Virus record (IMG/VR): IMGVR_UViG_3300036806_000124
Location: 1-44,505 of that record
From: a virus
Direction: 5' to 3' (one strand)
DNA length: 44,505 nt
The notes under the pieces are model-generated. The model made no database searches, was not told where the DNA came from, and saw nothing but the letters and a program-made list of their open reading frames with translations. Every line of letters begins with the position of its first letter. Position 1 is the first letter of the stretch. The position numbers and the translations under genes were made by a program. This document shows positions 16,704-22,852 of this stretch, piece after piece.

Positions 16704-16848
16704 CATTTGCTTCATCCGGCGCAAACCACGAAGTCGGTCGCGCGGAATACGCAATCGGAAGCCGCCGCGCGAAACCATCGAGAAGCAATGCAGGACATGC
16801 AATCGGTGGCGATCAAAAATCTACAATCCGCAGGGAGCGCACCCGTGA
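16663..16848 (+). CDS. Zinc-knuckle protein (61 aa)
   Basis: A 61-residue protein beginning MKNCPKGHPYTVDNICF, with a second C-x2-C pair (QCRTCNRW) after a basic stretch. The CPKGHPYT/CRTC pair is the zinc-binding part seen at the N-terminus of many phage HNH endonucleases, here without the HNH catalytic domain. It may be a remnant or a small nucleic-acid-binding protein. Its TGA overlaps the GTG start of the exonuclease. Confidence 0.65.
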   Translation: MKNCPKGHPYTVDNICFIRRKPRSRSRGIRNRKPPRETIEKQCRTCNRWRSKIYNPQGAHP

Positions 16849-17774
16849 AAATCACCAAACCGGGAATCTATCGCGACATCGACGTTGCCGACTACCATCG
16901 AGATCCATGCGAACGGCCGTCATTCTCGCAGTCGATCGGCAAAATACTGATCGATCAATCGCCCTGGCACGCGAAGTGCGCGCATCCCCGCCTCACGCCG
17001 GTCGAGCCTGGCGACGAGGAAACCGAAAAATATGTAAAGGCGCAGGTTATTGGCGATGCCGCGCATAAGCTGATGATTGGTCGCGGCAAGGATTTGCTGT
17101 TTGCACAGTTTGAAAACTGGAAAACGAAAGCGGCCCAAGAGTTTCGCGATAAGGCAATCGAGCGCGGCCAACTTCCAGTCCTGCACGCGCACCTCGACCA
17201 AGCCCATGCCATCACGCTTGCGGCCAAATTGCAGTTAGCCTCACATGAGGAAAACGATTGTTTCAGGGCGCCCGGCGCCGGCGAGGTTGCGCTGATCTGG
17301 CAGGAAGGCCCGATATGGTTCCGATGCTTGGTCGACTATCTGCACGACGATCTTCTGATAGCTGACGACATGAAAACTAGCGGCATGTCGATGGCGCCGC
17401 ACGTTCTCGGAGTGCGCGCGGCCGATGCCGGATGGGATATTCAGGCCGCCATGATCGAGCGCGGGCTTGACGTCCTCGATCCGAAGAACGCCGGCCGGCG
17501 TAAATTCCGTTTCATCGCGCAAGAGCAAGATCCGCCACACGCGCTGAACGTGATGGTGATGACAAAGCCGTGGATGACGATGGGCCACAAGCGGCTGCAA
17601 CACGCGATCGACATTTGGAATACCTGCGTCACGCTCGATAAGTGGCCCGGCTATCCGCCGTATGCGTTGCGGTTGGAATATCCCGGCTTCAAAGAAAGTC
17701 AGTGGCTCAATCGTGAGATTCATGAGGCGGCCGAAAATCGCAAACCAATGCTCACATCGATTGCAGGAGGTTAA
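16845..17774 (+). CDS. PD-(D/E)xK exonuclease (RecB/RecE-like)
   Basis: A 309-residue nuclease related to the phage exodeoxyribonuclease VIII/DUF3799 group. It opens KPGIYRDIDVADYHRDP, typical of the family. Catalytic positions can be followed: E in GAGEVALIW, D in RCLVDYL, the D-x-K of LIADDMKTSG, and the Q of WDIQAAMIERG. It should degrade double-stranded DNA ends to give single strands for annealing by the Sak4-type protein encoded downstream. The GTG at 16845 overlaps the previous stop (GTGA); the longer upstream frame is only a shadow of the zinc-knuckle gene. Confidence 0.85.
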   Translation: MKITKPGIYRDIDVADYHRDPCERPSFSQSIGKILIDQSPWHAKCAHPRLTPVEPGDEETEKYVKAQVIGDAAHKLMIGRGKDLLFAQFENWKTKAAQEFRDKAIERGQLPVLHAHLDQAHAITLAAKLQLASHEENDCFRAPGAGEVALIWQEGPIWFRCLVDYLHDDLLIADDMKTSGMSMAPHVLGVRAADAGWDIQAAMIERGLDVLDPKNAGRRKFRFIAQEQDPPHALNVMVMTKPWMTMGHKRLQHAIDIWNTCVTLDKWPGYPPYALRLEYPGFKESQWLNREIHEAAENRKPMLTSIAGG

Positions 17775-17776
17775 GC

Positions 17777-18436
17777 ATGTCCAAAGTTGCTCAGCTAAAA
17801 TCAGTCGCCCAGCCAGAAACTAAGATCGTAATAACGCCGCCGAAAATGGCGGTTGCGACGGTCAAAATCACTGGCACCGCGCCCTATCTTCAAAATCGGT
17901 TCAGTTCTGAAAATCGCGACAAGATGCTCGAAACACAAAAAGCCGGCTCATCCGTGAAGAAAACGCGGAAAGCCAAGGCGCCTAAAGATTTTGAGAAAGT
18001 CTATCGCGGCTCGATGCACATTTCGCAAGAGGGCTGGCCTGGCATTCCCGCCACGGCGCTGCGTAATGCGATGATTGCCGCCTGCAGGTTGACCGAAATG
18101 GAAATGACGCGCGCCAAAATGTGCATTTTTGTCGTCAGCCAAGGGCTCGATGCTGAAAGCCTTGAGCCATTGATAAAAATAGATGGTGAGCATCGTATGC
18201 ACATCGAGCGCGTCAGTATTGGAATGGGCTCGACCGACCTAGCGGCGCGCGCCATTTTTGAGAAGTGGTCAGCCACCTTTCAAATCGAATGGGATGACGA
18301 TGTATTCAAAGCGCAAGACATCGTGAACCTACTGGCACGCGCTGGTTGGCAGGTTGGCATCGGCGCCGGTCGCCCATTTTCAAAGATGAGCGGCGGCACT
18401 GGCAAGGGCACATTCAAAGTCGATATGGAGGGCTAA
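17777..18436 (+). CDS. Phage recombination-operon protein, possible RAMP/Cas7-like fold
   Basis: A 219-residue protein with AGGAGG upstream of ATG 17777. Three landmarks resemble RAMP proteins such as Cas7: an N-terminal strand with TVKITGTAPYLQNRF, a WPGIPATALRNAMIAACR helix near residues 88-105 (Cas7 proteins have IPGSSLRGxxR), and a glycine-rich end, VGIGAGRPF with GGTGKGTFKV (compare the GGxxSxGxGxF loop). There are no catalytic residues that I can identify. It sits between the exonuclease and the Sak4-type ATPase, where a single-strand-binding protein is often found. The fold is an inference from motif order; the gene itself is certain. Confidence 0.8.
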   Translation: MSKVAQLKSVAQPETKIVITPPKMAVATVKITGTAPYLQNRFSSENRDKMLETQKAGSSVKKTRKAKAPKDFEKVYRGSMHISQEGWPGIPATALRNAMIAACRLTEMEMTRAKMCIFVVSQGLDAESLEPLIKIDGEHRMHIERVSIGMGSTDLAARAIFEKWSATFQIEWDDDVFKAQDIVNLLARAGWQVGIGAGRPFSKMSGGTGKGTFKVDMEG

Positions 18437-18919
18437 GTGAGCATCGAATCTGAACTGCTAATCATCAAAGGCAACAATGAAATGCTGACGGCAGAAGCCG
18501 TCGTTGAGTGGGCGCGCAAGCATCCAGAATCGGCCCTTTATAAAGCGCCGGAATTTCACGGCTGGGATGTGAACAAATCAGCCTATGAACATTGGCTGTG
18601 GGGAGCTCGCAGGCTCATCGCAATCCATGTCGTGTACGAGGACGGCCAGCGCAAGTTCATATCCCTTTCGCTCGATCGCACGAAGGAACACGGAGGCTAT
18701 AGAGACATCGATGACGTGCTCCGTGACAAAAGCCTGCATGACATCATGCTCGCGGATGCCCTGCGGGAATTGGATCGTGTGCAGGCGAGATATGAGCGTC
18801 TTAAAGAATTGACACCTATTTGGCGTGAGGCGGCAAATCTTCGGCGCCGAAATTCCAGAGCAGGCAAAGCGGTGCTTGGCCAAGACCAGCCGAGCAGCGC
18901 GCGGCCAAGAGTAGCATAG
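18437..18919 (+). CDS. Unknown protein of the recombination operon
   Basis: A 160-residue protein with a GTG start directly after the previous stop. The N-terminal part contains LTAEAVVEWARKHPESALYKAPEFHGWD and HWLWGARRLI, a pattern found in hypothetical phage proteins of Hyphomicrobiales. The rest is helical and charged. The last ~20 residues are encoded by the beginning of the AG-lattice repeat, so the natural C-terminus may have been extended by the repeat. The function is unknown. Confidence 0.72.
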   Translation: MSIESELLIIKGNNEMLTAEAVVEWARKHPESALYKAPEFHGWDVNKSAYEHWLWGARRLIAIHVVYEDGQRKFISLSLDRTKEHGGYRDIDDVLRDKSLHDIMLADALRELDRVQARYERLKELTPIWREAANLRRRNSRAGKAVLGQDQPSSARPRVA

Positions 18920-19321
18920 CAGGCATAGCTATGACCGGACCAGCGCAGTCCAGCCGCCCGTAGATCAGCAATGTCCAGCAAAGCAGGCGGAGCACAGCCT
19001 AACTCAGCTCAGTCAAGCGCAGTCCAGTAAAGCGGGCAATGCAACGAACAGCAAAATGTAGTGACGCCTTGTGTAGCAAAGCAGGCGAAGCGCAGTCGAA
19101 CCGAGTAAAGCGCGGTGCAGCTTAGTATAGTAAATCGAAGTGGAGCGAAGCAAAGCAGGCATGGCCCATCGCAGTTCAGCCGTGATTGCCGAGCCGATCC
19201 GAGCAAAACAAAGCAGGCAAAGTTGAGCACAGTGTAGCGCTGCATGGACTAGCAAAACTAAGCAGGCAGTGCATAGCCAAGAGTCGCAGAGTTCAGCAGA
19301 GCGTAGCTAAACAGAGCAGGC
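18855..19321 (+). repeat. 5-bp AG lattice with AGCAGGC phase-shift cores
   Basis: On the plus strand, AG (mostly AGC or AGT) recurs on a 5-bp grid for about 465 bp. AGCAGGC cores are at 18859, 18918, 18982, 19080, 19154, 19212, 19261 and 19315, with AGCGGGC at 19031. After each core the grid shifts by exactly one base, so core spacings are 59, 64, 49, 49, 74, 58, 49 and 54 (5n-1, apart from 58, which has a second slip near 19190). It is T-poor and non-coding except for the end of the upstream gene. The last core sits eight bases before the Sak4 start and may serve as its ribosome-binding site. Confidence 0.85.
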
Positions 19322-19328
19322 AAAATAA

Positions 19329-20282
19329 ATGTCCTTCCGTCCAGCATCACGCGCCGAAGCAAAGCCATTGATCGGGCTCTATGCCAAATCAGGTCACGGC
19401 AAGACATGGAGCGCATTGCTATTGGCGCGCGGCTTTGTCGGGCCTGGCGGCAAAATTGGAATGATAGAAACAGAGGGCGGCCGCGGCGAAGCAAACGTTG
19501 GCCGTGAACCTGTCGGGCAATACTTTGTGCGACCAATCCGCGGCAATTTCTCGCCAGAGGAATACGACAAAGCTATCAGTGACGCCGAAAATGCCAAGAT
19601 TGATGCTTTGATTATTGATAGCGCGAGTCACGAATGGGAGGGTGCGGGCGGCGTGCTCGCGATGGCCGCTGAGAACGACGCGGCCGGCAAGAAGGGGGTC
19701 CTTGTTTGGCAACAACCGAAGATTAAACACCAACGCCATTTTATGTTGCGCTTGATGGGGACGCCGATACCCCTCGTCATCGTTTGTATGCGGGCGAGAT
19801 TTCCGATGGAGCATGCCAAAGGTAAGGATGGCAGAATGGAATGGGCTCGATCGACAGTTCTTGAGCCAAAGCAGGATGATGACATTCTATATGAAATGTT
19901 CGTGCACGGCTGGATCGATAACGAACACAAACTTCATGTTACAAAATACACGATGCCAGAACTCGGCCATGTCATCATCGATGGCGAGCCGATCGGCATT
20001 GAAAGCGGCCAGCGTCTTGCGACGTGGGCCAAAGGTTCGCCGCAGCCGTCGTCCTCTGCGGTGAAGGCCGCTCCGTCCGAGGCCCACCAGCAGACTGACG
20101 GGGCGGCCGATCTTTCTGAACGTTTGAAAGAAGCTGACAAGGCGCTATCCGCCGCGGCGTCGATGGGAATGGAAATGCTGCAAACGGCGTGGAAAACAAT
20201 CCCGGCTGACCTAAAGCCTTCGCTCAAATCAGCGCTCGATCGCCGATACAAACCAGTGGCCGAACTTGTCAATGCCAAGTGA
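19329..20282 (+). CDS. Sak4-type RecA-fold recombinase (AAA_24 ATPase)
   Basis: A 317-residue protein. Walker A is at GLYAKSGHGKTWS near residues 15-27 and Walker B is DALIIDSASHEW near residues 96-107. The TEGGRGEA and QQPKIKHQRHFMLRLM segments are typical of the phage AAA_24 group, which includes Sak4 single-strand annealing/recombination proteins. The C-terminal part is a flexible linker and a helical domain (LKEADKALSAAASMGMEMLQTAWKTI). Paired with the upstream exonuclease it forms a phage recombination module. Translation starts at ATG 19329; the preceding 410 bp are the AG lattice. Confidence 0.85.
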   Translation: MSFRPASRAEAKPLIGLYAKSGHGKTWSALLLARGFVGPGGKIGMIETEGGRGEANVGREPVGQYFVRPIRGNFSPEEYDKAISDAENAKIDALIIDSASHEWEGAGGVLAMAAENDAAGKKGVLVWQQPKIKHQRHFMLRLMGTPIPLVIVCMRARFPMEHAKGKDGRMEWARSTVLEPKQDDDILYEMFVHGWIDNEHKLHVTKYTMPELGHVIIDGEPIGIESGQRLATWAKGSPQPSSSAVKAAPSEAHQQTDGAADLSERLKEADKALSAAASMGMEMLQTAWKTIPADLKPSLKSALDRRYKPVAELVNAK

Positions 20283-20307
20283 AATCCGAACTTGAGGTAC
20301 TATTTCC

Positions 20308-20628
20308 GTGACCGTTCCGCTTTACGCCACCGATGAGCAACTGGCCAAGGAAGTGCTTGGTACAGGCAAGCTTGTGCAATGGCGGGCGTATGTAGCGGTA
20401 TGGACTAGGTACGGTTTTCCCCCGGCCGATGAAGTGACCGGCTTGCGTTACTGGCCTGCCGTGAGACAATTCTTTGACCGTCGCCACGGGCTGACAACGG
20501 TTGCACCACATTCAGCGCCCGATGGGAGGGAGAAATGGCCAGCAAGATCAACGCGCCCGGCCTCCGATGGCGCCAGCGAGCAAACGGCGAATGTAAGGCA
20601 TATTGGGTCGGGCGTTCGGACCTCGTAA
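20308..20628 (+). CDS. Excisionase-like small protein preceding integrase
   Basis: A 106-residue protein with a GTG start. The core YATDEQLAKEVLGTGKLVQWRAYVAVWTRYGFPP has the layout of short winged-helix/excisionase-like proteins (a helix-turn-helix, then GFPP and VRQFFDRRHGL), and similar proteins directly precede integrases in Bradyrhizobium elements. It overlaps the integrase gene by 94 bases; the part after VAPHSAPDG is low complexity and may be dispensable. It likely directs excision, but this is inferred from motif and neighbour. Confidence 0.7.
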   Translation: MTVPLYATDEQLAKEVLGTGKLVQWRAYVAVWTRYGFPPADEVTGLRYWPAVRQFFDRRHGLTTVAPHSAPDGREKWPARSTRPASDGASEQTANVRHIGSGVRTS

Positions 20629-22216: not shown

Positions 22217-22461
22217 GCAAAACCGATCACAACCCGTCGCTCTTGTTGATGATCCCTGCGTTGATGTGTGCCCCGCTCATAATCGGGGGCGTCCTTGCTG
22301 TGGGGAGCGCAATCGTCGCCAATAACATACTCAGTGGTTCACTCAGCCGGGCTGGGGCCAAATGGGTCGATGAACAGGAACGCGAGGCGTTCAAGGACTC
22401 GATAGATGAAATTGAGCCACGTTCGAATCCAACTCTCCGAGGCGAATGCTTTCGTCTCTGA
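22213..22461 (+). CDS. Small membrane protein (82 aa)
   Basis: GTG 22213 overlaps the lipoprotein stop (GTGA). Two closely spaced hydrophobic stretches (SLLLMIPALMCAPLIIGGVLAVGSAIVA, read as LLLMIPALMCAPLII and GGVLAVGSAIVA) predict membrane insertion, followed by a polar, charged tail. It overlaps the XF1762 gene by 56 bases. No family is recognised. With the lipoprotein it forms a small envelope pair. Confidence 0.6.
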   Translation: MSKTDHNPSLLLMIPALMCAPLIIGGVLAVGSAIVANNILSGSLSRAGAKWVDEQEREAFKDSIDEIEPRSNPTLRGECFRL

Positions 22462-22852
22462 GCACCACAGGCACCACAAGCCTGTCATCGGACATTTATT
22501 TTCAATCGGCGCGGTTATCAATGATGAGCTCGTTGGTGTTGCTATTGTAGGGCGCCCGGTGGCAAGAATGCGCGATGATGGCCTAACCGCTGAAGTCACG
22601 CGCCTATGCACGGACGGCACAAAGAACGCCTGTAGCTTCCTCTATGGCGCGGCGGCTAGGGCTGCCTTTGCACTCGGCTTTAAGCGCATCGGCACCTACA
22701 TCCTCGCTAGCGAGCCGGGAACATCACTGACAGCTACAGGATGGCGATTGATTGGGGAAACTAAAGGCGGATCGTGGTCGCGACCGTCACGCGGGCGTAC
22801 CGACAAGCATCCTATCGCACCTAAGTTCTTGTTCGAGAAAACAGCGAGTTAA
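22406..22852 (+). CDS. XF1762-family protein (GNAT-like)
   Basis: A 148-residue protein. AFVSEHHRHHKPVIGHLFSIG, VGVAIVGRPVARMRDDG, TAEVTRLCTDGTKNACSFLYG and TYILASEPGTSL form the near-invariant core of the XF1762 family, which is widespread in phages and has a GNAT acetyltransferase-like fold. The substrate is unknown. It starts with ATG 22406 inside the end of the previous gene. It is probably an accessory gene of the rightward transcript. Confidence 0.88.
   Translation: MKLSHVRIQLSEANAFVSEHHRHHKPVIGHLFSIGAVINDELVGVAIVGRPVARMRDDGLTAEVTRLCTDGTKNACSFLYGAAARAAFALGFKRIGTYILASEPGTSLTATGWRLIGETKGGSWSRPSRGRTDKHPIAPKFLFEKTAS

What the first reader, a model, noticed from the sequence alone, without database searches (positions are those of the whole stretch)
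18855..19321. A 5-bp AG lattice that slips by one base at every AGCAGGC core
Indexing the bases by hand shows AG (AGC/AGT, some AGA) on a strict 5-bp grid over about 465 bp. The phase moves one base only at the AGCAGGC or AGCGGGC cores (18859, 18918, 18982, 19031, 19080, 19154, 19212, 19261, 19315), plus one extra slip near 19190. Core spacings are therefore 5n-1. It is not a simple tandem repeat: the three bases between AGs are variable, so something selects position rather than sequence. The strand is T-poor and has no stem-loops to speak of. It lies in a recombination operon between an unknown gene and a Sak4-type ATPase, and the last core can act as ribosome-binding site. Possible roles: a binding array for a filament-forming recombinase, a replication or recombination loading site, or a structured spacing element for an RNA-binding protein. 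I know of no described element like this.
Basis: seen in the sequence. Interest (0 to 1): 0.92.

Follow-up and report, generated by a model that had tools for sequence, protein, structure and literature searches.

The report
Phage guide-RNA array with altered repeats
The odd five-base rhythm is most probably a row of guide-RNA genes belonging to VIPR, a newly described CRISPR-like weapon that phages use against each other, in a variant whose fixed letters have changed from GGC to AGC.

Summary
AG occurs on a 5-base grid over 18859-19321 and slips by one base at AGC-A-GGC cores (phase-tracking score 236; best of 1,000 dinucleotide shuffles 55).

It is not a Sak4 element. It belongs to the two genes upstream. 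The 17777 protein is a RAMP (Cas7/Csm3-like fold, Z 11) whose only convincing solved sequence relative is the SUSP1 Vipr protein. The lattice is therefore best read as the vrRNA array of a VIPR system (Doudna lab preprint, April 2026). There, three fixed bases alternate with a variable NN, and the NNs specify a DNA target.

Nearly every Vipr relative examined with enough flanking sequence has such a lattice beside it. Elsewhere it reads GGC/NN with GGCAGGC cores. Only the window's clade (7 phages, 100/100 support) reads AGC/NN, or a mix of A and G, together with changes in the RNA-gripping G-loop (E197A, W210K).

Evidence for the code that does not rest on the preprint: three relatives share guide strings with NN 92% identical while the first fixed base is near chance (41% against 32%).

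No target of the window's guides was found, and vrRNA expression is untested. Verdict: a new variant of a very recently described kind.

The parts
17777..18436 (+). vipr gene: 219-aa RAMP (Cas7/Csm3-like), predicted vrRNA-binding subunit
   Evidence: phmmer to PDB 36pp 'SUSP1 Vipr protein' E=2.1e-4, family profile E=4.8e-6 with next hit 0.28; AlphaFold model pLDDT 85, all listed structural matches are CRISPR RAMPs, Z up to 11.3; phrog_4652
18437..18919 (+). candidate vipr-accessory (vap) gene, 160 aa, phrog_15946; its last codons overlap the first guide
   Evidence: Homolog in 60 of 92 Vipr-bearing loci, nearly always close downstream of vipr; predicted fold has no clear PDB match, weakly MecI/BlaI-like, E 0.5
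18859..19321 (+). vrRNA array: AGY/NN pentamers in 8 guides separated by XGC-A-GGC cores
18863..18920 (+). guide 1, NN: AA GG TT CA CC CG AG GC CA GT AT
   Evidence: parse
18922..18984 (+). guide 2, NN: AT TA CC CC GC CC CG GT TC AA CC AA
   Evidence: parse
18986..19033 (+). guide 3, NN: GG AC CT TC TC CA GC CC AA
   Evidence: parse
19035..19082 (+). guide 4, NN: AA AA AC AA GT GA CT GT AA
   Evidence: parse
19084..19156 (+). guide 5, NN: GA GC CG CG AA GC GC TT AT AA GA GG GA AA
   Evidence: parse
19158..19214 (+). guide 6, irregular: an internal extra slip near 19190, perhaps decayed or two short pieces
   Evidence: parse
19216..19263 (+). guide 7, NN: AA TG AC GT GC AT CT AA TA
   Evidence: parse
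19265..19317 (+). guide 8, NN: AG AT CA GT AG TC AG GT TA AG
   Evidence: parse

Best explanation
The lattice is the guide-RNA (vrRNA) array of a phage-borne VIPR system. The 17777 protein (Vipr, a minimal Cas7-like RAMP) is expected to polymerise along the transcript, each subunit gripping one AGY triplet and presenting the following two bases. The NN pairs of one guide then read a DNA target with one skipped base between them, and binding silences a gene of a competing phage or other mobile element. Each core (XGC, one base, GGC) ends one guide and starts the next, which is why the phase moves by one base there. In this clade the scaffold triplet has changed from GGY to AGY, most simply by altered RNA specificity of Vipr. 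Shown here: the lattice and its phase rule, the RAMP fold and Vipr kinship, co-occurrence of lattice and Vipr, conservation of NN over the triplets in relatives, and the clade-specific G-to-A change. Taken from the preprint for related systems: vrRNA expression, Vipr binding, the 1-nt skip rule, silencing. Inferred: that these hold for this phage, that cores are processing or guide boundaries, and that the G-loop changes cause the A preference.
For: Only convincing solved sequence relative of 17777 is SUSP1 Vipr. Its predicted fold matches CRISPR Csm3/Cas7 proteins throughout, Z up to 11.3. Preprint PMC13142463 describes vipr + vap + tandem pentamer RNAs of three fixed and two variable bases, 'or a related consensus', including staggered arrays of overlapping vrRNAs. 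Period-5 lattices lie beside vipr in reference phages of cyanobacteria, Gordonia and Mycobacterium and in alphaproteobacterial plasmids and in nearly all of 80 IMG/VR loci; three of the loci without one are cut off 500-600 bases after vipr. Sak4 relatives lack it. NN carries 0.01-0.07 bits per base against 0.33-1.22 for the triplet. Guides shared by L107, L109 and L112: NN 167/182 identical, triplet position 1 34/82, chance 0.32, several at shifted unit offsets; shuffled-guide control best p 1e-4 against 3e-12. NNs within a guide keep to one coding strand more than shuffled NNs.
Against: No target was found for any window guide in 3.5 Mb of held phage DNA with skips of 0, 1 or 2, nor for guides 2 and 5 by exact-core scans of IMG/VR. 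No long structured 3' tail as in the SUSP1 clade is visible; the array folds no better than shuffles. No promoter-like site was found on the + strand of 17600-19500. No expression data exist.
Confidence: 0.94

Rival explanations
1. The lattice is a protein-binding RNA leader that Vipr (or a TRAP-like protein) coats to control translation of the downstream Sak4-like gene; the NN bases carry no information.
For: It lies directly before the 19329 start codon and the last core resembles a ribosome-binding site. No target was found.
Against: The downstream gene is different in L010-L012 and other loci. Arrays reach 2.6-3.6 kb. NN strings are conserved at 92% between phages while the first triplet base is near chance.
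Confidence: 0.03
2. Binding or loading array for the Sak4-type ATPase or another recombinase.
For: Position in a recombination operon with an exonuclease VIII-like and a Sak4-like gene.
Against: Nine phages with Sak4-like relatives lack it in the surrounding 8-13 kb; in the held DNA, high-scoring arrays were found only where vipr is present. The one high-scoring stretch without vipr is a pentapeptide-repeat gene.
Confidence: 0.01
3. Neutral remnant of a degenerated AGCNN microsatellite.
For: Short period, and the lattice is imperfect (guide 6).
Against: A microsatellite would share its NN bases with neighbouring units; here NN is near maximal entropy, slips occur almost only at a conserved core, and NN strings are conserved between phages.
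Confidence: 0.01

Closest known systems
VIPR (Viral Interference Programmable Repeat) systems, PMC13142463 / bioRxiv 2026.04.26.720920
   Same: Phage RAMP gene (Vipr kin), small accessory gene, adjacent array of pentamers with three fixed and two hypervariable bases, guides mostly of 9-14 units, phage-borne
   Different: Triplet is AGY rather than GGY; guides are joined through 1-nt-spacer cores without a visible long structured tail; target and expression not shown. Whether the preprint's fig. S17 includes AGY could not be read.
Class 1 CRISPR effectors (Csm3/Cas7 RAMPs)
   Same: Fold of the 17777 protein (Z up to 11.3), expected filament on a guide RNA with regular interruption of pairing
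   Different: No CRISPR-like direct-repeat array in the window; 5-nt step in the RNA rather than 6; guide information is in separated dinucleotides
TRAP (MtrB) binding sites in trp leaders (from general knowledge)
   Same: Regularly spaced AG-containing triplets with 2-nt spacers
   Different: TRAP spacers carry no conserved information and sites number about 11 in one ring; the protein here is a RAMP

Membership tests
VIPR | Vipr protein: RAMP with RRM core, glycine-rich loop and thumb | tested here: met
   Profile match to SUSP1 Vipr 36pp E=4.8e-6; RAMP-only structural matches, Z up to 11.3; conserved G-rich C-terminal loop GIGxGRPxSxxSxGxGxGxF. The thumb was not examined separately.
VIPR | vap gene next to vipr | tested here: inconclusive
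   18437 has a homolog near vipr in 60 of 92 loci, but assignment to vap1-6 needs the preprint's supplement
VIPR | vrRNA tract of tandem pentamers with three fixed and two hypervariable bases, 9-16 units | tested here: met
   DP parse, guides of 9-14 NN apart from irregular guide 6; information content of triplet versus NN
VIPR | Consensus GGY/NN 'or a related consensus' | tested here: met
   Strict GGY is not met in the window (A 76% at position 1) but is met in the other relatives; AGY counts as 'a related consensus' (wording)
VIPR | Invariant structured 3' tail on each vrRNA | tested here: inconclusive
   No structure beyond shuffles; a conserved core (mostly XGC-A-GGC) recurs at every boundary; the preprint also reports staggered overlapping arrays
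VIPR | NN of the guide match a DNA target with a 1-nt skip | tested here: inconclusive
   No target above permuted-guide controls and none in IMG/VR core scans
VIPR | vrRNA is expressed and co-purifies with Vipr | not testable with these tools
   needs sRNA-seq and pull-down
CRISPR-Cas class 1 | CRISPR array of near-identical direct repeats with spacers | tested here: not met
   Tandem Repeats Finder reports no such array in the window

The most novel reading that the evidence does not exclude
A natural recoding of VIPR: one Vipr lineage has switched the scaffold base it grips from G to A (AGY/NN), through changes around the G-loop (E197A, W210K and others), and a sub-branch (L025-L027) has relaxed to A or G. 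Its large arrays let different phages hold the same NN message on unrelated scaffolds and at different offsets.
Probability: 0.6. Interest if true: 0.78.

Novelty: new variant of a known kind. Interest (0 to 1): 0.7.

Why it matters
VIPR is proposed as an RNA-guided system older than CRISPR, and it is known so far from one preprint. This window gives (i) a lineage whose scaffold triplet differs at a single base, with a short list of Vipr residues that changed with it, so the rule by which a RAMP recognises its guide scaffold becomes testable by swapping residues; and (ii) comparative evidence, not taken from the preprint, that the message lies in the NN bases. A working AGY/NN system might also run beside a GGY/NN one without cross-talk. 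It also removes a false lead, a recombinase-loading site.

Tried and rejected
Sak4 link: nine relatives of the ATPase have no lattice around the gene. A lattice-like stretch in L131 (294-601) turned out to be a pentapeptide-repeat gene with 15-bp units. Rfam: no match in 17500-20500. PADLOC and Pfam: no family for vipr. Genome contigs: two scans, no Vipr relative found; the patterns were few, so this is weak. Targets: window and clade guides against up to 3.5 Mb of held DNA at skips of 0, 1 and 2 gave nothing above permuted guides; exact IMG/VR scans of guide 5, guide 2 and the guide shared by L025-L027 gave only hits whose remaining positions match at about chance. A 21/26 hit in a portal-like gene (L129) is not in wobble phase and is no better than controls. 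A G-type guide of L082 matches 17/18 in frame to a 707-aa ORF of L092, but this is not significant after the number of trials. Protein-level search of decoded guides: nothing convincing.

Full report
Observation. The 5-bp AG grid is real. AG pairs at lag 5 number 32 against 10.9 +/- 3.0 in 2,000 dinucleotide shuffles, with harmonics at 10, 15, 20 and 25. A dynamic-programming parse into [triplet][2 nt], with penalised 1-nt and 3-nt spacers, covers 18859-19317 with score 236; the best of 1,000 shuffles is 55, and no other place in the window passes 20. The parse shows what the slip is: AGC-A-GGC, a single spacer base in place of two, after which the next unit is GGC. Core spacings are 4 mod 5 except one, where an additional slip lies. 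The triplet is A(76%) G(87%) C/T(65/24%) and the spacer bases are near-random.

What it goes with. Relatives of the Sak4-like ATPase (19329-20282) have no lattice: L001-L009. Relatives of the 17777 protein do. L010-L012 (83% identity; one phage found three times) have the same AGC lattice and cores after the 18437 homolog, followed by an unrelated gene. More distant relatives in a Rhodoplanes plasmid-like phage, cyanophage Cy-LDV1, Gordonia phages Ecliptus and Pipp, Mycobacterium phage Brocalys, and Paracoccus and Sulfitobacter plasmids carry 5-nt lattices of GGC/NN with GGCAGGC or GGCGGTC cores beside the gene. Of 80 IMG/VR loci found with a Vipr alignment, nearly all contain one; three of the loci without one end 500-600 bases after vipr.

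What the protein is. 17777 has no Pfam or PADLOC family. It matches PDB entry 36pp, 'SUSP1 Vipr protein' (phmmer E=2.1e-4; profile of 45 relatives E=4.8e-6, next hit 0.28). An AlphaFold model (pLDDT 85) matches CRISPR RAMPs, chiefly Csm3 (Foldseek; Z up to 11.3 over 149 residues). The only paper found describes VIPR: a phage RAMP, an accessory protein, and vrRNAs of 9-16 tandem YNNGG units whose NNs read double-stranded DNA with one skipped base, repressing competing elements; array forms include staggered overlapping vrRNAs, and the consensus is 'GGY/NN or a related consensus' (PMC13142463). The window fits this architecture: vipr 17777-18436, a candidate vap 18437-18919 (homolog near vipr in 60 of 92 loci; fold unassigned), and an array of eight guides, one of them irregular.

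Evidence for the code that does not depend on the preprint. In the clade's large arrays (L107 1.2 kb, L109 3.6 kb, L112 2.6 kb) guides of different phages share NN strings far beyond chance (p down to 3e-12; best p among shuffled guides 1e-4). Over nine such pairs (one of them within L109) NN identity is 167/182, while triplet positions 1, 2 and 3 agree at 0.41, 0.59 and 0.83 against chance 0.32, 0.54 and 0.70; in five pairs the shared string sits at a different unit offset in the guide. The pairs were chosen by NN similarity, so the NN figure is raised by selection, but the shuffled control shows the sharing is real and the triplets were not selected on. So the message is in the NNs and the triplets are replaceable scaffold. 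One shared guide differs between phages at two units; read antisense as codon positions 1-2 these differences are hydrophobic exchanges (I/M, L, V, F), as expected if the target is a protein-coding gene. Across all guides NN composition fits codon positions 1-2 better than 2-3 or 3-1, and NNs of one guide keep to one strand more than shuffled NNs. This is suggestive only.

The variant. Position 1 of the triplet is mostly G in all relatives outside the window's clade that have a readable array. It is A in the window, L010, L021 and L028 (70-82%) and mixed A/G in L025-L027. These seven Viprs form one clade (100/100) on a long stem (2.27 changes per column), so one change of scaffold followed by relaxation in a sub-branch is the simplest history. 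About 38 residues mark the clade; several lie in the G-loop region (E197A, M204, G206, T208, W210K). Loss of a glutamate that could pair with guanine is an attractive cause, but L091 has the same E-to-A change with a mostly G lattice (76% G), so it is not sufficient.

What was not shown. No natural target was found for the window's guides. Collections searched were limited to IMG/VR by exact core patterns for two window guides and one relative's guide, and to held DNA with mismatches. Expression, processing at cores, RNA binding and the skip rule for this clade are inferred from the preprint. The supplement of the preprint could not be read, so the AGY form may already be listed there.

Verdict. 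It is a VIPR guide array with a shifted scaffold letter.

Noticed in passing
L109:13017-16577 (- strand) and L112:5918-8517: Very large VIPR arrays, 3.6 and 2.6 kb with 43 and 34 parsed guides, in phages of the window's clade; several guides are shared between phages.
   Followed up: partly
window 22406-22852: Mom-like DNA modification protein (phrog_1384, E 5e-37), possibly protecting the phage DNA.
   Followed up: no
window 16707-17774: Exonuclease VIII-like gene (phrog_412; Pfam DUF3799 PDDEXK) directly upstream of vipr; in L001, L002, L006 and L008 a similar-looking gene adjoins the Sak4-like gene, so vipr, vap and array seem inserted between the two.
   Followed up: partly
L131:138-932: Pentapeptide-repeat protein gene with 15-bp units that mimics a 5-nt lattice; a trap for lattice scans.
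   Followed up: yes
L082:4290 guide versus L092:2911: 17 of 18 NN bases match in frame, skip base at the wobble position, in a 707-aa ORF of another VIPR-bearing phage; not significant after multiple trials.
   Followed up: partly
L019:3520-3700 and L020:4780-5050: Rhodobacterales plasmid VIPR arrays use GGC-G-GTC cores instead of GGC-A-GGC.
   Followed up: no
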